In this document: positions 1 to 36,273 of the stretch, piece by piece
Layout: each line of letters starts with the position of its first letter
Numbering within the stretch: position 1 is the first letter of the stretch
Translations under genes and position numbers: made by a program
Notes under the pieces: generated by a model
Databases searched by the model: none
The model's input: the letters and a program-made list of their open reading frames with translations, nothing else
What the model was told of the DNA's origin: nothing
Source of the DNA: a virus
IMG/VR virus record: IMGVR_UViG_3300045253_000070
Coordinates: 1-47,308 of that record
DNA length: 47,308 nucleotides
Reading direction: 5' to 3' (one strand)

Positions 1-127
1 TCCCGCGCTGTCGATCGTGTAAAGGCTCGTCGCTGACGCCGCTATGAGTTTCTGGCCGTTGGTGTCGCGGGAGCACGCGCTGACGGCGGCGGCGAAGCCT
101 ACGGAGGGGAACGCTTGCGCGAGCCTG
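1..127. repeat. Terminal direct repeat, left copy (assembly overlap)
   Basis: These 127 bases are identical to 47182-47308. The repeat lies inside an open reading frame that continues smoothly from 47181 to 1, which shows a circular or circularly permuted molecule of 47,181 bp. A length of 127 equals a common assembler k-mer, so the repeat is more likely an artefact of closing a circle than a biological terminal repeat. Confidence 0.95.
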
Positions 128-444
128 ACCTGTCCCGGCGTGGATACGTCAACGTTGGAGCCGAGCCAGTAGCGGCCGTCGGTCCCGGTGCGGAAGAACT
201 TTTGTTGTTCGCCGAGCGACCAGTCGCGTTGCCGGTCGTTCAGGAAGAAGTCCTGGGCGTTGTCGCCGTACGCGTTACTGACGTTCGACCGGTCAACGAA
301 CGTGGCGGAATGCGAGTAGACCGCCCGGTGGGTACGGAACGGGAGGCTTGGCTCGAGCGAGGCGAGGAGCATGTACCCGTACCCGTTGACGACGACGTCG
401 TAGGTTCCGGGGCAGTCGGCGGCTGTCGCTGCGCCCTGGGCCAT
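1..444 (-). CDS. Tail nozzle-like protein, N-terminal part (gene continues at 47181)
   Basis: This is the 5' part (148 codons) of a gene starting with ATG at 444 and continuing through the circle junction into 47181-45706, 639 residues in all. The N-terminus reads MAQGAATAADCPGTYDVVVN. Its ATG directly follows the TAA of the adaptor-like gene upstream. Podovirus tail nozzles (P22 gp10, T7 gp12) are of similar or larger size, contain a beta-propeller and follow an adaptor gene; order and repetitive beta-rich composition fit, but sequence identity to those families was not established. It would form the distal tail tube contacting the cell surface. Confidence 0.7.
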   Translation of the reverse strand, partial: MAQGAATAADCPGTYDVVVNGYGYMLLASLEPSLPFRTHRAVYSHSATFVDRSNVSNAYGDNAQDFFLNDRQRDWSLGEQQKFFRTGTDGRYWLGSNVDVSTPGQVRLAQAFPSVGFAAAVSACSRDTNGQKLIAASATSLYTIDSAG

Positions 445-1323
445 TTAGAGCGGCGCCGCGACGTGCTTCGTCAAGGGGGGCATCGCGACTGTGAGGAGTT
501 CACGGTAGAACCGTTGCATCAATGCCTGCCCCGTCGACAGCGAGATCCCCGGCCGGTTCGCCTCCTCCCGCCTATCCGTCGCGCCCGTGTCAGACCGGTC
601 GCGCCCGGATTCGGCCGACATCAGAAGGTGCGCTGCGGCATACAGGATCGGCAGGTTCTGCGCCCTGGGCGGCCACGCCGGGTTCAGCGTCGAAGCGGTC
701 GACGACAGGTGCTCGAACGGGCCAAACCCTGACACGCGAAGCGTCGTCGCGACCGGAGCCGACGACTGCAAATGGATGTAGCGGGTGCCCTCCGGCCCCT
801 GCACGATCCGCCACCGCCGCGTCTCCCGGTACGTGAGCTCGCCCACCTGTAGCGTCTCCACCTTCGTGACTATCGGGATCTGGTACGTCCCCTCCGGGTA
901 GCTACCAGGCAGGTTCGGCACCAAATACTCGTAGGTGTTCGCGACCGTGCTGATGGTGGTGTCGGTGACGGGCTTGTAGATGTACGGCCAGCACGCGTCG
1001 ATACCCATGTTTAATGCGTCGAGGATCTCCTGCGCGTAAAACGCGGGCCGGACAAGGATCCCCGCCGAGGCCGCGTGCGTCGCTGACGTCGACCCAGCCC
1101 ACGCCCGAGTCACCGTCAAACTTGTCCCGGTGGATGGTGCGGTGCGGACCATCATCGTTTCGTAGTCGATCTCGATGGGACGGCGGGCCCGGTAGAACGA
1201 CGTGTCCGCCACAACCACGCTCGTCCCCGTCGAAGCGAGCGACACGGAGAGTGTGTCTTGGTCGGGGATGTCGCGGACGAACCGGCGGACCCGGTCGACC
1301 CAGTTAGCAGCAGAGGTCGCCAC
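445..1323 (-). CDS. Head-tail adaptor / tail tube A-like protein
   Basis: A 292-residue protein with a GTG start whose G overlaps the upstream TAG. It begins MATSAANWVDRVRRFVRDIP and includes an Ig-like beta stretch (about 20-95) followed by a helix (YAQEILDALNMGIDACWPYI) and a C-terminal helical part. Position after the capsid gene and before the nozzle-like gene, with size near 200-300 residues, is what is expected for the ring protein joining portal and tail in podoviruses (T7 gp11 or P22 gp4 role). The function is inferred from order and general composition, not from a diagnostic motif. Confidence 0.6.
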   Translation of the reverse strand: MATSAANWVDRVRRFVRDIPDQDTLSVSLASTGTSVVVADTSFYRARRPIEIDYETMMVRTAPSTGTSLTVTRAWAGSTSATHAASAGILVRPAFYAQEILDALNMGIDACWPYIYKPVTDTTISTVANTYEYLVPNLPGSYPEGTYQIPIVTKVETLQVGELTYRETRRWRIVQGPEGTRYIHLQSSAPVATTLRVSGFGPFEHLSSTASTLNPAWPPRAQNLPILYAAAHLLMSAESGRDRSDTGATDRREEANRPGISLSTGQALMQRFYRELLTVAMPPLTKHVAAPL

Positions 1324-1529
1324 TACGCCTTCTCACTCACCTTCGACAGAGACGTCTGCCCCCACGTCGGCACCCCGGACGGCTTCCACTCCTTGAACCC
1401 TTCCGGTAGCGGCGACACGTAACGCGGGATCACGCGGCCCTTCTCGGCCTGCTCGCGTTCGCTGGCCGCAACCTGGCAGGCGACGAAGTTGAAGTGGGGC
1501 TGCCCGCATTTCTTACAGGTGGGTGCCAC
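1323..1529 (-). CDS. Small zinc-ribbon protein between capsid and adaptor
   Basis: 68 residues. The GTG start at 1529 was chosen because GGAGG lies about 4 bases upstream; a longer frame exists but runs back into the capsid gene. The N-terminus carries CKKCGQPHFNFVAC, a CxxC plus a third cysteine and a histidine, suggesting a metal-binding knuckle, followed by a charged C-terminal half. Such small proteins occur in many actinophage head modules; the role is unknown. The stop overlaps the adaptor GTG by one base. Confidence 0.7.
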   Translation of the reverse strand: MAPTCKKCGQPHFNFVACQVAASEREQAEKGRVIPRYVSPLPEGFKEWKPSGVPTWGQTSLSKVSEKA

Positions 1530-1576
1530 GTTGCCTCCAAAGGATGGTGGGGGGCCGAAGCCCCCCGGTGTTGGTC

Positions 1577-2725
1577 TTACGTCTTGTTGCTGATCCACGC
1601 GTGGACCTGCGGCTGGCGGAACTCGAGGCCCCACTCGCCGAGGATCCGGCGCTTCTTACCGTCGAGCCAGTCCGAGCCGACGATCGTAAACAACGCCCGG
1701 CGCCCGTACGGGCGGGGACGGATGCGGTCCTTACAAAGCAGGAACGCGTCACCGGTGTTCACGCGGTTGTCGACGACGACGTCAACGACGTTCCCCTGTC
1801 CGAGCAGGAGCTTGTTGACGATATAGCCGGCACCGGTGTCGGACTCCAGCATCCGACGGTTTGAAGCGTCGATGCTGTTGACGGAGTCGACGAGGTCTGT
1901 CCCGACGAGCAGCAGGTCCGGGTACGCGCCCAGGTCGACGATCGACTTGTTGACCGAGTTGAGCGTCGTGAGGGAGAGCGCACCGGCGGTGCTGTTCGTC
2001 TGGCCGGAGCTCGAGGAGATCCAGTATTGGAACCCTCCGAGCGACCGGTAGACCGTGTCGGAGCCTGCCGAGACGGGGCGGGAATAGATGAGAGACTTCG
2101 TGAAGTTCTTTTTCCATTCCAGCATCCTGTTCGACAGTTGGTGTGCGACCTGGTCCTGCATCGCGGTCGCGGACATCCTCCGTTCGAGCTGCGAACCGGA
2201 GATCTGGAGGTCGAACTTGCCCGAGATGATCTGGGTGTAGTTCGTCCGGACGGTCGGGTTGACCGACACGTCTGTCCCGATGTCCGAGAACTCCTGCTCT
2301 GCCCGCATGAAGCACACCGTCGCACCCGAAGCGATGGACGCGGTCGATGTTGCGGCGTAGCCGCGGCTCACCGACACGTTGTTCGTCGAGTTGAGCGCCG
2401 TGACCTGCATCACTTCTGACGTGGTGGACTTCGCCGACGTCACCGTCACGAGGTCACCGACGTGCGCCACCGTGTTCGTCGACAACGTCAGAGACGTGTC
2501 AGACGTACCGGCGGAGACAGTCGTGGTCGTGGTGTCTGCGTTGAGGGTGTCCTCAACCCAGTAGTAGGTGATGTCGTCGAGCGGGTTCGCCAAATCCACG
2601 TTCAGGTTGCCGAGAAGGTGGAAGTCGAAGAACAACGCTTCCGAGAGGAAGGGCGAGATGTCGAGGATGTTCGCCTGCGACGCGAGGTCGAAGGTCGAGA
2701 AAGCGGATGAAGATGAAAGAGCCAT
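1577..2725 (-). CDS. Major capsid protein (SU10/HK97-fold type)
   Basis: 382 residues, ATG start preceded by AAGGTGGTG. The N-terminal region (NILDISPFLSEALFFDF) and the central block around VRTNYTQIISGKFDLQISGS followed by a long helical stretch (about 180-215, QVAHQLSNRMLEWKKNF) fit the SU10-like (DUF5309) capsid proteins, where an RTRxxNYTQI-type motif precedes the spine helix. An Ig/beta insertion rich in T and S lies at about 60-125. It follows the scaffold and two small genes, as in most head operons. The long 198-base leader holds a tRNA-like minihelix (2873-2917), unusual for this dense genome. Confidence 0.85.
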   Translation of the reverse strand: MALSSSSAFSTFDLASQANILDISPFLSEALFFDFHLLGNLNVDLANPLDDITYYWVEDTLNADTTTTTVSAGTSDTSLTLSTNTVAHVGDLVTVTSAKSTTSEVMQVTALNSTNNVSVSRGYAATSTASIASGATVCFMRAEQEFSDIGTDVSVNPTVRTNYTQIISGKFDLQISGSQLERRMSATAMQDQVAHQLSNRMLEWKKNFTKSLIYSRPVSAGSDTVYRSLGGFQYWISSSSGQTNSTAGALSLTTLNSVNKSIVDLGAYPDLLLVGTDLVDSVNSIDASNRRMLESDTGAGYIVNKLLLGQGNVVDVVVDNRVNTGDAFLLCKDRIRPRPYGRRALFTIVGSDWLDGKKRRILGEWGLEFRQPQVHAWISNKT

Positions 2726-2872
2726 TTGTGTATCACCACCTTTCGTGGCTGGATTTCTTCAAGCCCTCGTCGTGTCGCGTCAACCCTGCTGGTCGGCTAT
2801 CGCGCGAACCGCTAACTGCGTGCCACGAATCGCCTACAAGGCGGGGTTGGGGCGGTAACGTTTGGAGGGGTA
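2726..2872. other. Capsid gene leader, rest
   Basis: This is the remainder of the untranslated stretch between the minihelix and the capsid start. On the minus strand a TTGACG occurs about 50 bases before the start codon but without a good -10 at the right distance. I see no reading frame with coding character and no clear terminator. Confidence 0.4.
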
Positions 2873-2917
2873 AGCCCGCGCGCCGGACTCGAACCGGCCG
2901 AGGATCCTTCGCGGGCT
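2873..2917 (-). ncRNA. tRNA-like minihelix (acceptor + T arm) in capsid mRNA leader
   Basis: Read on the minus strand, AGCCCGCG pairs perfectly over 8 bp with CGCGGGCT. Enclosed is a perfect 5-bp T stem GCCGG/CCGGC with a canonical 7-base T loop TTCGAGT. An 11-base linker (with the palindrome AGGATCCT) replaces the D and anticodon arms, and one unpaired base separates the T stem from the acceptor 3' strand. No CCA follows and no U-run, so neither a full tRNA nor a classical terminator. It could be a tRNA fragment, a remnant of tRNA-associated attachment, or an RNA-processing signal: an acceptor-T minihelix is the minimal RNase P substrate. Confidence 0.6.
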
Positions 2918-2923
2918 ACTGGG

Positions 2924-3169
2924 TTAGGCGATGGTGATGACGCAGTACGTCGAAGTCACCGACGCGGTAACCGTGAACGATGTCGTCTGCAACGAGTTCG
3001 CGTCGACCTGTAGTGCGCGGCCGGCGTCGATGATCGCTGTTTTCAGGTTGTTGGCGTTGTGCTCGTTGAACCCGGTTGCGGGGCCGAGCAGAGCGGAACC
3101 GGACTTGAACGCGAGGTTGGTGTCCTCACGGATCTTCGCTCCGGTCGTGGAGTAGGTGAGAGAGGCCAT
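2924..3169 (-). CDS. Small virion-module protein, unknown
   Basis: 81 residues, ATG start with an AAGGGGGG ribosome site. Sequence begins MASLTYSTTGAKIREDTNL and ends in a beta-rich stretch with threonines. It lies directly before the capsid gene leader, where head-decoration proteins are often found, but I recognise no family. It is the last gene before the minihelix. Confidence 0.65.
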   Translation of the reverse strand: MASLTYSTTGAKIREDTNLAFKSGSALLGPATGFNEHNANNLKTAIIDAGRALQVDANSLQTTSFTVTASVTSTYCVITIA

Positions 3170-3184
3170 TCTTCACCCCCCTTC

Positions 3185-3382
3185 TCAGTCGATTCCGGGG
3201 TGGAGAACCCAGCCTGCCGGGAGCGGGCTGTCCTGGTCGTTGCCTTCGTCACCGACGCTTCCGACGTTGATGTCGGTGATGTTGTGGTCGGATGAGCCGA
3301 GGTAGACGCCGTCCCGGATCGGGTCCGGGTTAGGGTCGCCGCCCGGCTCGCTGGTGTACGGGATGTCGTTGAGTGTGGCCAT
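3185..3382 (-). CDS. Small acidic protein, unknown
   Basis: 65 residues, beginning MATLNDIPYTSEPGGDPNPD and ending PAGWVLHPGID. Acidic, Pro/Gly/Asp-rich, no helix-forming stretch. It abuts the scaffold stop and sits in the head assembly module. No family recognised. Confidence 0.55.
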   Translation of the reverse strand: MATLNDIPYTSEPGGDPNPDPIRDGVYLGSSDHNITDINVGSVGDEGNDQDSPLPAGWVLHPGID

Positions 3383-4177
3383 CTATTCACCCCCTCGTTT
3401 CTTGTCCTCGATCGCGAGCATCGTCCGGAAATGGTCGGCCAACGACTTCGCGGTCTTCCGTGAGTCGACGATCGCCGCCTCAGCGTCGCCCGTGATGGCG
3501 GCTGCGGCGCCTGGCCCGGTGACTGGTTTCCCGTACGCGATCGCGGCGTCGGATTTCGCTTCGGCGCGGGTCTCGGCGAGGATCTTGTCTCTCGCGGCTT
3601 GCAACGCTTTCAGTTGCGGCTCGAGGATCCGGTACGACTTGTTGTGCGACTCCGCCGCGGCCCGCTCAAACGACCGGCGGCTGGTGGCTTCGATCGAGTC
3701 GATGTCGGCGAGCGGATACATCTCCTTGTACTTCTGACGCCACTTCGCCGTATTGCTGGCGACCCGCTGGGAACGTTCGTTGTCGAGCGCCTTCTGCGCC
3801 TGACGGAGCTGCGCCCGGAGCTTCTGCGTCTCCGGGTCCGCATACTCGTCCGGATCATCCTCGGTCACGGTGACGGAACTCGTGACGGTTTCTTCTTCGT
3901 CGTCGTCGAGGTCGAGCTCGTCTAGGTCGACGGGCTGGTAGTCGGGGAGCGCCGGGATCTCCGGTGCTTCGGGTGCTTCCGTTTGTTGCGTGCTCGCCGT
4001 CTGCTCCACTGGAGCGGCGAACTTGGGGGCGGCTGCTGCGCCAAGAGCCTCGGTGTAAGGTGCCCGAGCTCCCGGTGCCGGTGCTGGCTCGTCAGGCTCA
4101 GGCGCGAGGCCCATCGCTTCGACGAGAACATCGGCTGCCCCACGCCACGCGTCAACCTCGGTCTGAGGCGTCGACAT
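3383..4177 (-). CDS. Scaffold protein
   Basis: 264 residues. An Ala/Pro/Glu-rich N-terminal half, an acidic run (DLDELDLDDDEEE, about 88-100) and a long charged coiled-coil stretch (about 115-200, TQKLRAQLRQAQKALDNERS) with a basic tail (DKKRGGE) are the usual features of capsid scaffolds. Its place a few genes upstream of the capsid gene supports this. It would guide procapsid assembly and then leave the head. No protease motif is seen in it or beside it. Confidence 0.75.
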   Translation of the reverse strand: MSTPQTEVDAWRGAADVLVEAMGLAPEPDEPAPAPGARAPYTEALGAAAAPKFAAPVEQTASTQQTEAPEAPEIPALPDYQPVDLDELDLDDDEEETVTSSVTVTEDDPDEYADPETQKLRAQLRQAQKALDNERSQRVASNTAKWRQKYKEMYPLADIDSIEATSRRSFERAAAESHNKSYRILEPQLKALQAARDKILAETRAEAKSDAAIAYGKPVTGPGAAAAITGDAEAAIVDSRKTAKSLADHFRTMLAIEDKKRGGE

Positions 4178-4194
4178 GAGTGTGGTTCCCTTCG

Positions 4195-5067
4195 TTAGGA
4201 GGCTACGTCAACGCCGCCGGAGCGGCCCACAAGACCCGGACTGTTCAGCCCTTGGGGTCCCAGGTTCAGGGACGACGTAGCGAGCGTCCCCGAGAAAATC
4301 TTCTGTGCGCGCTGCGCGGCAACCTGCAACCGTTTCTGCACGAGCTGGCCGAGCGGCGTATCGATCCCGGCCTGCTCACGGCCGCCAGCCTTTAACTCGC
4401 CCGCGGATAGCTGACCGGTGCCAGCGTCTCCGAAGTTGCCCGCCAAATACTGCCAGTCGTTCGCGTTCGTTTGCGCGATCGCGTCGCCTTGGAACTGGTT
4501 CGCGATCAGTTGCGGGTTCGCCCCCGACGCGAGCGCTGCGGCGGCTTCGCTGCCGGTGACGTCGCGGCCCTGGTACTGCCGGTACACCTGATTCAACGCG
4601 TTCACGTACTGGCGGTAGCCTGACTCGTCCGTGAATAGGCCTGCCCGGACGCCTTCGGCGAAGCCGGGGTAGGTGGCCTTGTACCAGTCGGAGCCGCGGA
4701 TCGTGTTGAGCGCGGACTGGTAGAAGACGTCGGGGTTCGACGTCCCGTACTTCTGGCCGAGCGCCTCGATCTGTCCGCGCAAGTCGGCGGGTAGCCCGTA
4801 GCTACCGAAGTACACGTCGGCCCAGTCGGTCGGCGGCGCGGCCGGGGCACCGTTCGCGCTGGTGTCAGCGGAAGCGCCTGCGCCGTAGTTGTCCTCGATG
4901 CTGCCTGGCCCGAAACCTGCCTGCTGCGCCCCCGTCTGCGACCGCGGCACCGTCGTTGTTACCCCGCCGATCTGGGCGCCGGTCTGCTGCGACCCGTACC
5001 CTTGGTAGAGCGCTGGCGGCGGCGGGATCAACGGCTGCGGAGGCTTAGGTTTGAGGGCTGGGGCCAT
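4195..5067 (-). CDS. Probable virion/ejection protein with helical repeat modules
   Basis: 290 residues. A Pro/Gln/Gly-rich N-terminus (1-85) precedes helical modules at about 85-215, such as SDWYKATYPGFAEGVRAG and YVNALNQVYRQYQGRDVTGS, which resemble the modules in the C-terminal half of the transglycosylase gene just upstream (5045-6268). The start overlaps the end of that gene by 23 bases, so the two are probably translated together. Function unknown; the shared modules suggest both are packaged in the head and ejected. Confidence 0.65.
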   Translation of the reverse strand: MAPALKPKPPQPLIPPPPALYQGYGSQQTGAQIGGVTTTVPRSQTGAQQAGFGPGSIEDNYGAGASADTSANGAPAAPPTDWADVYFGSYGLPADLRGQIEALGQKYGTSNPDVFYQSALNTIRGSDWYKATYPGFAEGVRAGLFTDESGYRQYVNALNQVYRQYQGRDVTGSEAAAALASGANPQLIANQFQGDAIAQTNANDWQYLAGNFGDAGTGQLSAGELKAGGREQAGIDTPLGQLVQKRLQVAAQRAQKIFSGTLATSSLNLGPQGLNSPGLVGRSGGVDVAS

Positions 5068-6268
5068 TTAGCACCGTCTGGTTGCCTTGGATGAGGCCCA
5101 GCCTGTTCGCTAGACCATAGTAGAGCTGCTGCGCCTCCGCCGACGATTTCCACTGCGGCTGCTTCCGCAGGTACGCGGCGAACGTGTTGGCGTCGTACCC
5201 GTTCTTCACCGCCATGTCGATCGTCGGCGCATCAGCCGGCGAGGGTTGCCCGTAGATCTGCCGGTACACGTTCTCGTTCGCAGCGTACGCAGCCTTGTAC
5301 TCGTTCGACGTGTTGTAGTCGGGGCGTTGCCGGAGGACGTCCTGGAACGCGCCGGAGCCGAGGTTGTTCGCGACCGCGTTCCGGATCGCCGCCTGATCCG
5401 GCGTCGAGTTCTGCCCGTACACGGAATGCCAGACCGCGACGTAGCCGGGCGCGTTCTGCTTCCACACCGGCGAGTTCACAAACCCCGGCGTCTGCGCCAA
5501 GTCCTGGCGTAGCTGGAACTGCGACTTCCCTGTCGCGATCAGGTGCGCGGCCTGCGTATAGGACGGCCGCTTCCCAGTCCAGGCGAGGTAGTCGTCGCTG
5601 ATCGACTGGTACTGCGACAAGAACGTCGAGCGGGTGACGGGGATGCCGTACTGTTTGATCGTCCCTTGCGGCGGCGCATCCGAGTTGACGAACTTGAGTT
5701 TGCCGCCCTGCACCACAACCCACGGGTCAGTGAGTGCTCTTTTCGCGGTCGCTGACTCGACAGACGCGACCGCCGTGTCCGTCGGCGACTTCGCCGTCGT
5801 TGTCGGCACATACGTTTTTGGGACGTCCTGGAAGATCTGCGGGCCACCCTGGTTGTAGCCGCCCTGGCCGCGGTACGCCTGGTCGTAGTTGCCGCCCGCC
5901 GCCGACAGCTTTTGCCCGAAATAGTAGGCCGAGTAGCGCAGGTTGAACGCTGGCGTCTTCAAGTCCTGCAACGTCACAGTCGTACCTGGTGCCCACGGGA
6001 CGGCTTCGCCGACGTGTAGCGGCATGATCTGGCCGAGGCCGATCGCTCCCGCGGACGAGACCTCGTTCGGGTTGCCTTTCGATTCTGTGTTGATGAGCGA
6101 TGCGAAGTAGAGTGGGTCGATCCCGTAGTTCAGGGCGTTCCGGTAGATCCCTTGCGCCCACTGTTTCAGCGCGGGATGCTTGTTCACGTAGGCGTCGAAG
6201 ACGGCCCGCTGGCTGGTCCCCGTCTTCGGGGCGGGTGGCGCGATCTTGACTATCGGATTGGGCGCCAT
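5045..6268 (-). CDS. Virion lytic transglycosylase (SLT domain)
   Basis: 407 residues. The SLT/goose-lysozyme-like fold is clear at about 35-140: catalytic Glu62 in LINTESKGNPNEVSSAG, then AIGLGQIMPLHVGEAVPWAP and a late NLRYSAYYFGQKL stretch. The C-terminal half (about 215-395) holds at least three repeats of roughly 65 residues (for example YGQNSTPDQAAIRNAVANNL and YGQPSPADAPTIDMAVKNGY). No signal peptide is present, so it acts from the virion, cutting peptidoglycan during genome entry, as T7 gp16 does, rather than as the lysis enzyme. It lies beside the 1,667-residue ejection-type protein and an M23-like protein. Confidence 0.85.
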   Translation of the reverse strand: MAPNPIVKIAPPAPKTGTSQRAVFDAYVNKHPALKQWAQGIYRNALNYGIDPLYFASLINTESKGNPNEVSSAGAIGLGQIMPLHVGEAVPWAPGTTVTLQDLKTPAFNLRYSAYYFGQKLSAAGGNYDQAYRGQGGYNQGGPQIFQDVPKTYVPTTTAKSPTDTAVASVESATAKRALTDPWVVVQGGKLKFVNSDAPPQGTIKQYGIPVTRSTFLSQYQSISDDYLAWTGKRPSYTQAAHLIATGKSQFQLRQDLAQTPGFVNSPVWKQNAPGYVAVWHSVYGQNSTPDQAAIRNAVANNLGSGAFQDVLRQRPDYNTSNEYKAAYAANENVYRQIYGQPSPADAPTIDMAVKNGYDANTFAAYLRKQPQWKSSAEAQQLYYGLANRLGLIQGNQTVLNGPSPQT

Positions 6269-6275
6269 CTACCGT
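6246..6275 (+). promoter_or_regulatory. Candidate leaderless promoter for plus-strand gene at 6284
   Basis: A -35 TTGACT (6246-6251), an 18-base spacer and a weak -10 TACCGT (6270-6275) lie so that transcription would begin at or one base before the ATG at 6284. The same geometry (18-base spacer, 8 bases from -10 to start codon) occurs before the other plus-strand gene at 15934. The -35 half overlaps the start of the transglycosylase gene on the other strand. Confidence 0.35.
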
Positions 6276-6283
6276 CCTTCGCT

Positions 6284-6379
6284 ATGAAGCTTCGTCTGCA
6301 AGCCGTCGCCCTCATCATCGGGTTCGGCCTCCTCGCGGTCGCCGCTGTCGCGTTCATGGTCGGCACCTTCTGGGACTAG
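6284..6379 (+). CDS. Tiny plus-strand membrane peptide (31 residues)
   Basis: The product is a short basic head (MKLRLQ) followed by one clean hydrophobic segment and the end MVGTFWD. It fills the only gap (6269-6375) between the transglycosylase and the 1,667-residue gene, is antisense to the late operon, and its TAG overlaps the TAG of that gene. About 26 of 30 codons end in G or C, as expected for a coding frame in this genome. No ribosome site is seen; a leaderless-type promoter precedes it. It may be a regulator, a superinfection or lysis-timing peptide, or not expressed. Confidence 0.5.
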   Translation: MKLRLQAVALIIGFGLLAVAAVAFMVGTFWD

Positions 6380-9300
6380 CCGACAAGCTGGTTCAGGAAG
6401 TTCGGGCCGAACGGGGTCAGGTAGTCGCGGAGGTCTTTGTTCTCGGGGAGGTTCAGCCACGGCAAGATCTGTGTCTCCATCGCCTTAGCCCACTCCGCAC
6501 GGTAGTACGACGACTGCCCGTTCGCTTTGATCCCGTCAGCGACCTGCAACGCAGCTTGCCCGATCACCTGGTCGAACTTCTGTTTGGCGGGCATCTCCTG
6601 GTAGAGAGACGTCTTCTCGAACTGGCGGATCCGCGGCTGCGACAACGTGTTCACGTAGTAGCTGTAGCTGCCCCCATACCCCGGCTGCTTGTCCAGGCTC
6701 TTCCAGACGGCCGCGAGCTGCTGCTTCGAGATCGACTGGCCTGGGTAGTCCTTCCGGTACTGCACCTTCGCCGCATCAATCGCAGCCAACGCGGCCGACA
6801 CGTTCGCGGGATGCTTCACACCGAGGAGGTCGAGCTCGTAGTTCGCGAGCGACGTAAACGGCTTAGACGCCAAATAGGCTTCGCGTTCCTGCCGCGTCTT
6901 GGGGTCGAGCATCGCCCACGCCATCCGGACCGGGGAAGGGAACTGGATGCCGTTGATCGTCACCGGGTGGTCTTGCTGGTCGCGCCACGCCCGGAACGCC
7001 GAATCCGCGGCGCTCCGCTTGTCGGACGGCATGGTCTTGATCGCCGTCACCTTCGCGTCATACGCCGCCCAATACTTGTTCACATGGACGGTCTGGTAGG
7101 TGTCGCGGATCTTCCCGAGCGCATCCGTCGGGTACGCCTTGAACACTTCCAGCTTTTGCAGGATCTCCCGTTTGAGGGTCTTGACTTCTTCGGGGGTCTG
7201 CACGTTCGCTTTCACGTACTGCGGGTCGCTCAGCAACGTCAGCTCGTTCTGCAAACTCTTTTGTAGCGGCCCGATGATGTCGCCCTGCTGGCCTTGCAGC
7301 TTCGGGAACGTCGCCGACAAGAAATGGGCCGGGTCGAACTGCGGGTCTTTGTTGACGAGTTTCCCCCACGGCCCGTACGGGATCGTCGTCCCGTTCGGCA
7401 CCCCGCCCTTCGTATCCACCCCGGCAGAGTGCGCGTCATCGACCAGCAGCTTGTTCCGGGTGTTCTGCAACGCCACGTTCAACTCGCGCCGCTTCTGCTC
7501 AAGCGGGATCGACCACTCGCCGGCCTTCTTCGCCTGCGCGTACAAGTCACGCCGCGCAGAGTGGTACGCGTCGAGAGCGTTCGTCCAACGCTGGTAGAAC
7601 TCTTTGTCGTGCAGGAACCGCTTCGGATCCTGATAGACGCCGAAGTGATCCGAGAATCCTGGATGGTCGTCGAGGAACTTCGCGCGGGCTTTCGGGTCGA
7701 TCAGCGCCATGTACTGCGCGAGTAGCTGCTGCTGATCCGTCCTGTCCACGTCAGGGACAACCGGGAGCGGCAGGTTCGCCCGCCAATACTCCTGCCCGAG
7801 CTGGTGCAACAACACCGTCTTGACGGCGGTTGACTCGTTCGCGTAGTGGCCGTGCTCTTTCATGTACTCGAGCTGGTACTCGTTCAGAGCACGGGTGATC
7901 CGGTCGCCGGTCTGTTTGTCGAGGCCCGCGACCGCGTAGCGGTAGGTCGGCGCCTCCATCCCCATGTGGATCTTCAACAGCTTCGTGCCGAGAAACGTCG
8001 CCGTGTCGGAACGGGTGAGGATGTTCCCGGAGGTCCCGGTCGCGCCCTTGATCGCGGCGTCCAACGATCCGCCGGACTTGATGAAGTTGAACACGCCCAC
8101 AGCGAGCGGCGCCGTCTCGTCGTACTCGCGGCCGGGAACCCAGACCAGCCGCTCCAACGGGATCTGCCACTTCTGTCCGAGCACCGTAAACGGGAGACTT
8201 ATCCCGCCGTGCTTGTTGAGGGTGTCGTGGAAGTCAGCGACCGCCGCCGCGTACCTGGGGTTCCGGACGAACGTGGACGCAACCCATTTCCAGTACAGCC
8301 GATGCTTCGTCGCGAAATAGGAGAGCCAGCGTAGATCCTGTTCGACCTGGAGCCGGTTCGCGAAGTCGAGCATGTGGTACTTGACCGTCTTCTCCGCCAC
8401 CTGCGACGCCACATCGAACGCCTCCCGGTCAGGGAAGCCTGCGCCTTTCAGGATCGAGTAGTGTTTCGCGAGCACCGTCTCACCGAAGTTGCTGCGCCAG
8501 AACTTGTTCGGCCGCATGATCACGTTGCCGACCCACCGGCCCGTCAGATCATCGAACGTGCCCCTGGTTTCGACCTGGCCGTGGTCCACCGGGAAGTCCA
8601 ACTCGTTCCGTTTGATCCACTCGCCCAACGCTGGGCCTGCGTCGTGGCCAGCGTTCTCACGGAGCACCGCCGTCGCGTCATCGAACGAGAGTCCCTTGGC
8701 CTGGAACGCTTCCCCGATGGTCTTGTACCGCTGCTCGATCAGCGCCGCGTAATCCTCCGCCGACAGGTCAGGGTTGTTCTTCCGCAGCGACTTCCACAAC
8801 CCGCGGAACTCTTTGTCGTGCAAGATCAGTTGGACGAGCGAACCGTCCTGCGAAGCGAGCAGGGCCTTGGAGTCGAGTTGTCTTCGCAGGAACTCGCCTG
8901 CGGCGGTCATGTGCGATCTGGAGTCCAGCTTCTCGCCGGTGCGGAACGACTCGGTGGTGATGTTCCAGCCGCCCCGGTTGAGCGCCCAGTTCGCCTCGCC
9001 GCCGCGCATCCTGTCCAACAGCGCCCCGTACCGGCGCGCGAGCTCCGGATCTTTCGCGGCCATCCCCGCTAGCTCTTTCTTCGCGGCTCGTACTTCGGGG
9101 GTGAGCGCGTCACCGATGCCGCCAACAACCGCGCGCAACCCGTCACCGATCGAGTGCTTCCAGAACAGCGAGAACCCGCCCAGACCGGTGAGAGGGTTGG
9201 CGCCGGAGAGGATGATTCGGGCGTGAACCTTCGCCGCCTTGTTCAGCCCGGCGTTCACTTTCTGGGTGAACGTCTCGATGCTCTTTAGCGCGTCCTCGGT

Positions 9301-32465: not shown

Positions 32466-33229
32466 GCGGCAGCATCCATGAGCGAAAGCCATTCCTCGTT
32501 TGCTCGCACAGCGCGATTGCCGATGCCGCCCTTAGCTCGACCGGCGCTGAGTTGAACAGCGGTCGAGCTAAGCGGCCGCCCCTCCGACACGAACACATCG
32601 GAATGGGTGGCTAGCCGCCGTCCAACTGGAACTGCATCGAGGACGTGGCCGTAGGCCGTAGTTCCGTCGTAGGGCGGGTCGATGTAGACGAGGCTTTCTG
32701 GCTCGATCATTGACTCGATGTGAACGACATCAGCGCAACGTCCCCACACTCCGCGCATGAGGGAAGCCGTCCGCTCCAAACGAGTTAGGAGCGTTCCCGG
32801 CATCGGCATCATCGGATTCACTGGAGAGCGACGGCTTGACGTAGCCGTAGGCTCCCAGTACGCCCGGAACGAAGTGTTCCGCCACTTGTTGTCCTCGATC
32901 CAGATGGCCTTGCCACCGAACGACGACGCTTGCAAGAGAACGAACACTTCAGCCGTGTCGATGCTCGCGGGCTGCTTAGACAGTTCCTCCATGAAGCCCC
33001 GGAAGTGCCTGAGATCGCTCGGCATCTGCTCGACGTAATCGGAGACGATTTTGGTAGAGAAGGTTCCGTCCCCGATGGCGTTCCAGAACAGACCCCACGG
33101 GCCAGCGTCCACCATCCGAATATCGCTCGGCGAATAGCCTCGGTTGACCATTTCAACAGAGACGGCTCCGCAGCCGCAGCACAGTTCCCAGAAAGGTTTG
33201 GTCGTGGACCGAGGCCGACTCGCAGCCAA
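32462..33229 (-). CDS. D12-class adenine DNA methyltransferase (start uncertain)
   Basis: About 255 residues from a TTG at 33229. KPFWELCCGCGAVSVEMVNR is the SAM-binding motif I (FxGxG-type) and SLVYIDPPYDGTTAYGH the catalytic DPPY motif of Dam/D12 enzymes, which methylate adenine N6. The usual motif X region preceding the start is short. No good ribosome site is seen for the TTG; the preceding frame overlaps 33153-33229, so a frameshift with the small gene upstream is possible. Confidence 0.75.
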   Translation of the reverse strand: MAASRPRSTTKPFWELCCGCGAVSVEMVNRGYSPSDIRMVDAGPWGLFWNAIGDGTFSTKIVSDYVEQMPSDLRHFRGFMEELSKQPASIDTAEVFVLLQASSFGGKAIWIEDNKWRNTSFRAYWEPTATSSRRSPVNPMMPMPGTLLTRLERTASLMRGVWGRCADVVHIESMIEPESLVYIDPPYDGTTAYGHVLDAVPVGRRLATHSDVFVSEGRPLSSTAVQLSAGRAKGGIGNRAVRANEEWLSLMDAAA

Positions 33230-34998: not shown

Positions 34999-35209
34999 CC
35001 TTGACCAACTCCTCTCGCATCTGCCAGCGCAGATCGGGCGCGTCCGGCTGCACGAGGACGGCACCACGAATCTCCGGGTGAACGCCGACGACGACCCCCT
35101 TTACTCCATCGGGGCAGACGACGCGATCTCCGACCTTCTCGGGAGTGATCGAGGCGCCCGACTTTTCGCCGCTGTCGCTAACGATCCGCCCTGCGGATTC
35201 GTCACTCAT
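34988..35209 (-). CDS. Small KOW-like beta protein, unknown
   Basis: 73 residues. The acidic N-terminus (MSDESAGRIVSDSGEKSGA) is followed by VGDRVVCPDGVKGVVVGVHP, a short beta-barrel pattern like KOW/SH3 modules, and REELVKDAD. ATGA overlap with the integrase stop. Function unknown. Confidence 0.55.
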   Translation of the reverse strand: MSDESAGRIVSDSGEKSGASITPEKVGDRVVCPDGVKGVVVGVHPEIRGAVLVQPDAPDLRWQMREELVKDAD

Positions 35210-36273
35210 CGAGCGCCTCCATTCTGCGGCGTACGTCCATCACCGTTTTCGAATCCCTCCTTCTCCGCTAACACGGATGCATCGAACGTAGATTCCACTC
35301 CCCAGTCGAGATCAACCACGACACCCATGTTCCGCTGCCTGTCCCGCCGGCGCAGATAGATCAACGTCGTCGCCATATCCACGTGCCCCATCAGGTCCTT
35401 GAGCGCGAGGGTCTGGTCGGGCTTGTTGTCAATGAAATAGACCGCGAACGCGGCCCGCAAAGCGTGAACATGCGAGATCACCTTCGCGTCGGCGGCGACG
35501 TCTTTGACGACCTTGTAGATGATCCGGGCGTCCCGCTCCGCCTTACGCGGGGACGCCTTCGAAGGGATCAGGTAGTCGTCGGGGTCGCCCCACACGCCGC
35601 CGAGGGCTGCCTGCCGGATGATCTCCGCGAGTCTCGTTGCGACCGGCTTCCGGATCGGCTTCCCGCCCTTCTCCTGGAACGTGAGTGTGGGAGGGTCAGC
35701 GAAACCGTCGTAGGCGCTGATCCGGAGCTGCGAGACCGCGCCACGCCTACCCCCCGTATACGCGAGCACCCCCAGGCAGAGCAAGGGACGCCACCTGTCC
35801 TGCGGTGTCAGCTTCAACCCAACGTCGCGGCCTGCCACAGCCAGCATCCTTTGGACCTCCTCAGATGTGACGGTGACGATGTTGTCGTTCTCGAGCGGGT
35901 TCTTACGCCTGGGCGCGACGACCCGGACGGTCGGATCCGTCGGGATCATGTTCTCGTCATGCAACCAGCCGAAGAACGCCTTCACGATCCCGACCCTCTG
36001 CGAAACCGTGTCCCTATCCAACGGGACGGAGCTGCCGACGCGGACGGTGATCCGGTCCAGGAAACGGCGGACCATGTCGACCGTGACCTCGTCAACGTCA
36101 TGGTGCGGGTACATGTCCGCGAGCCGGTCGAGGAAGGACCGGTAACGGATGATCGACCTCGGCTTCAAGCCTTGCCGGGCGAGCTCTCCGAGGTAGCGGT
36201 CTGTTGCGTAGGAGATAGTCATGGTGCGCAGTCTGTCGGCCCGGACGCCGTCTGTCATCTCGATAGCAGTCAC
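35206..36273 (-). CDS. int: Tyrosine integrase
   Basis: 355 residues, GTG start overlapping the upstream TGA. A SAM-like N-terminal core-binding domain (about 20-115) and the catalytic domain with R176 (TGGRRGAVSQLR), K202, H270-A-L-R273, H297 (LMGHVDMATT) and Tyr306 (TTLIYLRR). All five catalytic positions are intact, so it should be active and the phage temperate. It lies in the middle of the early operon, with no attP-like repeat found directly beside it. Confidence 0.93.
   Translation of the reverse strand: MTAIEMTDGVRADRLRTMTISYATDRYLGELARQGLKPRSIIRYRSFLDRLADMYPHHDVDEVTVDMVRRFLDRITVRVGSSVPLDRDTVSQRVGIVKAFFGWLHDENMIPTDPTVRVVAPRRKNPLENDNIVTVTSEEVQRMLAVAGRDVGLKLTPQDRWRPLLCLGVLAYTGGRRGAVSQLRISAYDGFADPPTLTFQEKGGKPIRKPVATRLAEIIRQAALGGVWGDPDDYLIPSKASPRKAERDARIIYKVVKDVAADAKVISHVHALRAAFAVYFIDNKPDQTLALKDLMGHVDMATTLIYLRRRDRQRNMGVVVDLDWGVESTFDASVLAEKEGFENGDGRTPQNGGAR

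What the first reader, a model, noticed from the sequence alone, without database searches (positions are those of the whole stretch)
2873..2917. tRNA acceptor/T-arm minihelix in the major capsid mRNA leader
The longest non-coding gap in the head operon holds an 8-bp acceptor-like stem and a perfect T arm with loop TTCGAGT, no D or anticodon arm, no CCA and no U-run. Known biochemistry: an acceptor-T minihelix is the minimal RNase P substrate. Inference: it may be cut to leave a protected 5' end on the capsid mRNA, raising its stability, or mimic tRNA to attract tRNA-binding proteins. It may also be a tRNA fragment left by integration or capture.
Basis: partly seen in the sequence, partly recalled or inferred. 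Interest (0 to 1): 0.72.

Follow-up and report, generated by a model that had tools for sequence, protein, structure and literature searches.

The report
tRNA-like hairpin before phage capsid gene
A little-known group of viruses of bacteria keeps a small folded RNA, shaped in half of the lineages like the end of a transfer RNA, just before its main shell-protein gene, probably to mark where that gene's message is trimmed or protected; it is real and conserved, but its job is untested.

Summary
On the minus strand 2917-2873 reads AGCCCGCG-11 nt-GCCGG[TTCGAGT]CCGGC-G-CGCGGGCT, 6 nt after the stop of an 81-aa ORF and 147 nt before the major capsid gene (DUF5309 type, 1577-2725). Within the window alone it is only mildly unusual. 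Relatives settle it. Six other IMG/VR phages (capsid 46-63% identical to this one) all carry a hairpin at the same place. In two other lineages it again has a tRNA T-loop with a G-C closing pair; the rate is 0.2% or less in matched shuffles and 1 in 3,332 other segments of these genomes. In the remaining lineages the loop is GUCGAA or GUCACA. Stems differ in sequence but keep pairing. In five of six lineages the two helices total 12-13 bp, near the 12 bp of a tRNA acceptor/T stack. A second conserved structured stretch lies at 2795-2834. It is not a tRNA gene, a U-run terminator or, as far as could be tested, an attachment-site fragment. Most likely it is an RNA processing or protection boundary for the capsid mRNA. 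RNase P is the best single candidate for the T-loop versions, but unproven: no RCCA sits at the stem end, and half of the lineages lack the T-loop.

The parts
2873..2917 (-). Two-helix hairpin (tRNA acceptor/T-arm-like minihelix): outer stem 2910-2917 with 2873-2880 (8 bp), linker 2899-2909, T-type stem 2894-2898 with 2882-2886 (5 bp), T-loop 2887-2893
   Evidence: Sequence; outer stem probability 0.94, T arm 0.22; same place in six lineages
2838..2872 (-). C-rich, G-poor tract directly after the hairpin (19 C, 3 G of 35)
   Evidence: Top 0.05% of same-strand windows here; weaker (1.8-11%) in the other lineages
2795..2834 (-). Second conserved leader domain (GATTCGTGGCRCGCA...GCGCGA), predicted stem-loop
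   Evidence: 14-pair consensus in four lineages with 2 compensatory pairs; single copy in the window
2735..2741 (-). Ribosome-binding site AGGTGGT (AGGAGGT or GGGAGGT in the relatives)
   Evidence: Sequence comparison
1577..2725 (-). Major capsid protein gene (DUF5309 type) served by this leader
   Evidence: phrog_1328, E 9.5e-21; relatives of the family hit annotated capsid/DUF5309 proteins; six relatives
2924..3169 (-). Upstream 81-aa ORF whose stop codon lies 6 nt before the hairpin
   Evidence: ORF list; no PHROG match; not found in the first seven relatives

Best explanation
A conserved structured RNA element forms the upstream edge of the capsid mRNA leader in this phage group. Shown by sequence: a two-helix hairpin with a nearly continuous 3' strand, placed 2-9 nt after the preceding stop codon where that gene is present, then a C-rich tract, a second structured domain in most lineages, and a strong ribosome-binding site. 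Inferred: it acts as a processing and protection boundary. The late polycistronic RNA is cut at or next to the hairpin, or exonucleases stop there, so the capsid message becomes a separate, longer-lived molecule whose 5' end starts in a stable stem. In the T-loop lineages (window, L013, L031) the stack imitates a tRNA acceptor/T arm, and the likeliest cutter is host RNase P, at 2917/2918 in the window. Likelihoods: conserved functional RNA about 0.9; processing or stability boundary about 0.4-0.45; RNase P as the enzyme about 0.25.
For: A hairpin sits at the same place in all six lineages despite 46-63% capsid identity. T-loop with G-C closing pair in three of six, against a rate of 0.2% or less in matched shuffles and 1 in 3,332 other segments; the capsid leaders of L013 and L031 give the only descriptor hits in the relatives' DNA scanned. 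Stems change with pairing kept: L012 GAG/CTC against L045 GACA/TGTC, L010 against L011. Stack of 12-13 bp in five of six lineages, close to the 12-bp measure used by RNase P (PMC11143913). U at -1 in four of six. L013's leader best matches mascRNA-menRNA, an RNase P product (25.5 bits, E 0.0024 on the leader, below gathering score; PMC4919922). In L045 the upstream gene is replaced by an opposite-strand HNH gene, yet the hairpin stays with the capsid gene.
Against: Three of six lineages lack the T-loop, in both capsid groups. No RCCA directly after the stem; an RCC follows 1-7 nt later in five lineages and none in L045. The window's T arm is not the lowest-energy inner pairing, and in L031 the tRNA-like outer stem has probability 0.01. 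No transcript data, no known host, no experiment.
Confidence: 0.4

Rival explanations
1. A generic stabilising hairpin at the end of the upstream cistron (protection against 3' exonucleases). The T-loop is only one of several stable caps, and the likeness to tRNA is incidental.
For: Hairpin 2-9 nt after the upstream stop in five of five lineages with that gene; loops differ (TTCGANN, GTCGAA, GTCACA); generic two-helix hairpins are fairly common (3.3% of natural segments reach 13 pairs).
Against: The T-loop recurs far above chance; in L045 the hairpin is kept without the upstream gene; it is followed by a conserved leader domain of the capsid gene.
Confidence: 0.25
2. A protein-binding leader: hairpin and second domain together form a site for the capsid protein, another phage protein or a host factor that controls translation or assembly.
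For: The second domain has high sequence conservation and a consensus fold with two compensatory pairs; the leader is long (about 170-240 nt) where distant DUF5309 phages have 1-15 nt.
Against: The second domain is not recognisable in L010/L011, and the hairpin differs in loop and sequence between lineages.
Confidence: 0.18
3. A transcription boundary: the hairpin and C-rich tract end the upstream transcript (Rho-type or without U-run), and a promoter of unknown type in the leader starts the capsid mRNA.
For: C-rich, G-poor tract after the hairpin; opposite-strand gene upstream in L045.
Against: No U-run and no sigma-70-type promoter; C-richness is weak in L013 and L031.
Confidence: 0.1
4. A tRNA fragment left by capture, or the core of an attachment site.
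For: T arm plus 3' acceptor strand is the usual tRNA attachment core; all six genomes tested carry a phrog_1 integrase.
Against: The 5' acceptor strand is present in every lineage and stems differ with pairing kept; capsid and integrase genes more than 12 kb apart in contig coordinates; no viral contig has the 25-mer.
Confidence: 0.03
5. A chance hairpin in GC-rich DNA.
For: 0.45 elements per shuffled window, folding z-score -1.3.
Against: Same-place recurrence in six lineages and pair-keeping stem changes.
Confidence: 0.04

Closest known systems
RNase P model hairpins: acceptor stem + T stem + T-loop (McClain and Altman, reviewed in PMC11143913)
   Same: Same anatomy: two stacked helices of about 12 bp with a T-loop, no D or anticodon arm
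   Different: Model substrates are described with a 3' RCCA interaction; here no RCCA at the stem end, and an 11-17-nt linker in two of the three T-loop versions (1 nt in the preferred L013 fold)
mascRNA and menRNA (MALAT1 and MEN beta; Rfam RF01684)
   Same: tRNA-like element lacking full tRNA arms inside a longer transcript; the L013 leader is a sub-threshold match
   Different: Mammalian, at the 3' end of long non-coding RNAs; the window and L031 elements do not match the model
t-elements of plant mitochondria (PMC8003010, PMC4919922)
   Same: tRNA-like structures between genes that set mRNA ends by endonuclease cleavage
   Different: Organellar, cut by the protein-only enzyme PRORP; not phage
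Phage and operon RNAs cut by RNase P (C4 antisense RNA of P1/P7, M3 RNA, T4 gene 32 mRNA, his and lac operon mRNAs; PMC11143913, PMC4919922)
   Same: Precedent for RNase P acting on phage RNA and on polycistronic mRNA
   Different: Those rest on experiments; the passages read describe no T-loop minihelix in a capsid leader

Membership tests
tRNA gene | Cloverleaf with D and anticodon arms, found by a tRNA model | tested here: not met
   ARAGORN finds none in the window or the relatives' loci; Rfam tRNA-Sec only 14.5 bits
RNase P minihelix substrate | Stacked acceptor/T helix of about 12 bp with nearly continuous 3' strand | tested here: met
   12-13 bp in five of six lineages; L031 has 10 bp and a competing fold
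RNase P minihelix substrate | T-loop (TTCRANN) closed by G-C | tested here: inconclusive
   Present in the window, L013 and L031; absent in L010/L011, L012 and L045
RNase P minihelix substrate | RCCA directly after the acceptor stem | tested here: not met
   Tails read TACCCC, TTACCACC, CTTACCCC, CTCGCCC, CCTCTTCGCC, TTCCTTCCC
RNase P minihelix substrate | Cleavage at the 5' end of the acceptor stem | not testable with these tools
   Needs an in vitro assay or 5'-end mapping
mascRNA-menRNA (RF01684) | Covariance model match at or above the gathering score (42.5 bits) | tested here: not met
   L013 25.5 bits; no match for the window or L031 leaders
Intrinsic terminator | GC-rich hairpin followed by a U-run | tested here: not met
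   Scan finds none at this hairpin
tRNA-derived attachment core | tRNA 3' half without its 5' acceptor strand, near the integrase gene | tested here: not met
   5' acceptor strand present; capsid and integrase genes more than 12 kb apart in contig coordinates
tRNA-derived attachment core | Identity with a host tRNA 3' end | not tested

The most novel reading that the evidence does not exclude
A family of double-stranded DNA phages uses a tRNA acceptor/T-arm mimic as 'tRNA punctuation' inside its late operon: host RNase P cuts at the minihelix and releases a capsid mRNA with a structured, protected 5' end, while other lineages have swapped the T-loop for other loops on a stack of similar length.
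Probability: 0.22. Interest if true: 0.78.

Novelty: new variant of a known kind. Interest (0 to 1): 0.52.

Why it matters
Phages must make far more capsid protein than the neighbouring products of the same operon (general knowledge). A conserved tRNA-like boundary in front of the capsid gene would be a simple way to do this with a host enzyme that nearly every bacterium keeps, and would give a natural set of minihelices, with and without the T-loop, for asking which non-tRNA RNAs RNase P cuts. Even if RNase P is not involved, the leader (hairpin plus second domain) is a candidate RNA family with no Rfam match at gathering score in the window.

Tried and rejected
Blastn of window 1-8000 and tblastn of its capsid protein in phage records: nothing. 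Capsid search from the single sequence in viral contigs: nothing; relatives came through the terminase and a capsid sub-alignment. Genome contigs with capsid or terminase alignments: nothing, so the host stays unknown. Exact 25-mer of the T arm and acceptor strand in viral contigs: nothing. DNA pattern scans for the second domain gave, as true members, only phages already known; the other matches had no related capsid gene. MAFFT misaligns the hairpins across loop types, so pairing was judged hairpin by hairpin. A first alignment of the L012/L045 hairpins used wrong coordinates and was redone. Rejected or disfavoured: tRNA gene, U-run terminator, attachment core, chance. Distant DUF5309 phages have no leader to compare. 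Literature searches turned up no T-loop minihelix in a phage capsid leader, judged from titles, abstracts and the passages read in the open library.

Full report
WHAT WAS CLAIMED. A tRNA acceptor/T-arm minihelix at 2873-2917 in the leader of the major capsid mRNA, perhaps an RNase P substrate, a tRNA mimic or a tRNA scar.

THE OBSERVATION. The window is a virus record with a 127-bp terminal repeat, as in a complete genome, and 64% GC. The head genes lie on the minus strand. The gene at 1577-2725 is a major capsid protein (phrog_1328, E 9.5e-21); relatives of the family hit capsid proteins called DUF5309. On the minus strand 2917-2873 reads AGCCCGCG AAGGATCCTCG GCCGG TTCGAGT CCGGC G CGCGGGCT: an 8-bp outer stem, an 11-nt linker, a 5-bp T-type stem with a T-loop and G-C closing pair, and 1 nt back to the outer stem. 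It starts 6 nt after the stop of an 81-aa ORF. No tRNA, no Rfam hit at gathering score, no U-run terminator here. The description is accurate. The isolated strand is only moderately stable for its composition (z -1.3), and the T arm competes with another inner pairing (probability 0.22; outer stem 0.94). Tertiary stabilisation of a T-loop is not in the energy model.

CHANCE WITHIN THE WINDOW. A descriptor (T-loop, closing stem of at least 4 pairs, outer stem of at least 6, at most 1 nt on the 3' side, 10 or more pairs) finds two places in the window: this one with 13 pairs, and one at 32538-32578 inside an ORF. Shuffled windows give 0.45 places, and 0.06 with 13 or more pairs. Alone, this would be a weak finding.

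RELATIVES. The terminase led to seven contigs and then more. Four of the first set and one of the second hold the capsid gene, and a capsid sub-alignment added one more contig, L045. Capsid identity to the window is 46-63%. The tree has two well-supported groups: window, L031, L045; and L012, L013, L010/L011. L010 and L011 are near-identical, so there are six lineages.

THE SAME PLACE IN RELATIVES. L013: GAGCCTG G CGGGG[TTCGACT]CCCCG CAGGTTC. L031: CCCGGC, 17 nt, GCGG[TTCGAGA]CCGC A GCCGGG. L010/L011: AACCCCG T TGGCGG[GTCGAA]CTGCCA CGGGGTT, with TGGTGG and CCGCCA in L011. L012: GAGTCCGCC CA GCC[GTCACA]GGC GGCGGGCTC. L045: GACATCCGCC CT GCC[GTCACA]GGC GGCGGGTGTC. Every one has an outer and an inner helix with 0-1 nt between them on the 3' strand and the interruption on the 5' strand, as in the acceptor/T stack of tRNA. 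The stack is 12-13 bp in five lineages, with the share of outer and inner helix varying. The hairpin starts 2-9 nt after the upstream stop in the five lineages that have that gene. In L031 the tRNA-like outer helix is out-competed by a longer alternative in the energy model (probability 0.01), although the T arm itself is certain (1.00).

SIGNIFICANCE. In matched shuffles of the 80-nt segments, T-loop elements appear at 0 to 0.2%; in 3,332 other segments of these genomes, once. Three of six lineages have one at the homologous spot. The generic two-helix hairpin reaches the observed size in 0.1-12% of shuffles, depending on the lineage, and 3.3% of natural segments reach 13 pairs, so the T-loop and the position carry most of the weight. 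The descriptor was fixed after seeing the window, so the window itself should not be counted; the other lineages are the test. Pairing is kept through change: between L012 and L045 the stem differences are GAG/CTC against GACA/TGTC, both fully paired, and both stem differences between L010 and L011 keep the pair. The stems of the three T-loop versions differ in sequence and all pair.

SURROUNDINGS. After the hairpin comes a C-rich tract (19 C, 3 G of 35 in the window; weaker in the others). At 2834-2795 lies a second domain, GATTCGTGGCRCGCA...GCGCGA, alignable in four lineages with a 14-pair consensus fold and two compensatory pairs; a related GTGGCACGCA stretch is visible in L031, and it is not recognisable in L010/L011. 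It is single-copy in the window. Then comes a strong ribosome-binding site. More distant DUF5309 phages have 1-15 nt between the preceding gene and the capsid gene, so the long leader belongs to this group. In L045 the upstream ORF runs on the other strand and reads like an HNH endonuclease (by eye, not by a library search), and the leader with its hairpin stays with the capsid gene.

HOW IT MAY WORK. Shown: conserved place, pairing and stack length. Inferred: a boundary element of the capsid mRNA. [quoted passage not shown] the 12-bp stack is thought to act as its measure, it contacts the T-loop region, and it cuts less well and at shifted sites when the T-loop is replaced by a tetraloop (PMC11143913). 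The D-loop appears dispensable, but a T-loop or similar loop is needed (PMC4919913). The element meets the length rule in five lineages and the loop rule in three; four lineages have U at -1. It misses RCCA at the stem end. The best Rfam match of the L013 leader is mascRNA-menRNA (E 0.0024 on the leader, 25.5 bits, below threshold), an RNA released by RNase P and RNase Z (PMC4919922). This makes RNase P the best single candidate, but not a shown one. The other loops (GUCGAA, GUCACA), spread over both capsid groups, argue that a stable stack of one length matters more than the T-loop, which also fits a general stability or processing hairpin.

RIVALS. A 3'-protecting hairpin of the upstream cistron; a protein-binding leader; a termination/initiation boundary with a C-rich Rho-type tract; a tRNA or attachment remnant; chance. 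The remnant reading is disfavoured because the 5' acceptor strand is present, stems differ with pairing kept, and in each phage with both genes the capsid and integrase genes lie more than 12 kb apart in contig coordinates. Identity with a host tRNA could not be tested, because no host was found.

VERDICT. A real, conserved RNA element and a candidate new family; tRNA-like in half of the lineages; function inferred. New variant of a known kind (tRNA-like and structured mRNA processing elements), interest 0.52.

Noticed in passing
window 2795-2834 (-); also L012, L013, L045 leaders: A second conserved, probably structured leader domain (GATTCGTGGCRCGCA...GCGCGA) about 70-130 nt before the capsid start; more conserved in sequence than the hairpin.
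   Followed up: partly
window 2838-2872 (-): Very C-rich, G-poor tract after the hairpin (top 0.05% of same-strand windows), possibly a Rho-type site or an unstructured spacer.
   Followed up: partly
L045 1-513 (-): An HNH-endonuclease-like ORF on the opposite strand sits directly upstream of the capsid leader in place of the usual small gene.
   Followed up: partly
L012 1332-1363 and L045 516-549: Nearly identical hairpin cores (CCGCCC[A/T]GCCGTCACAGGCGGCGGG) in phages from different capsid groups (capsids 48% identical), suggesting exchange of the leader or strong sequence constraint.
   Followed up: no
window 32538-32578 (-): A second tRNA-like T-loop two-helix match (TTCAACT loop) inside an ORF with a DNA methyltransferase match; probably chance.
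   Followed up: no
window 35206-36273 (-): Tyrosine integrase gene, with phrog_1 matches in all five relatives searched; the L013 phage's copy (G007:7983-9038) holds an in-frame TGA.
   Followed up: partly
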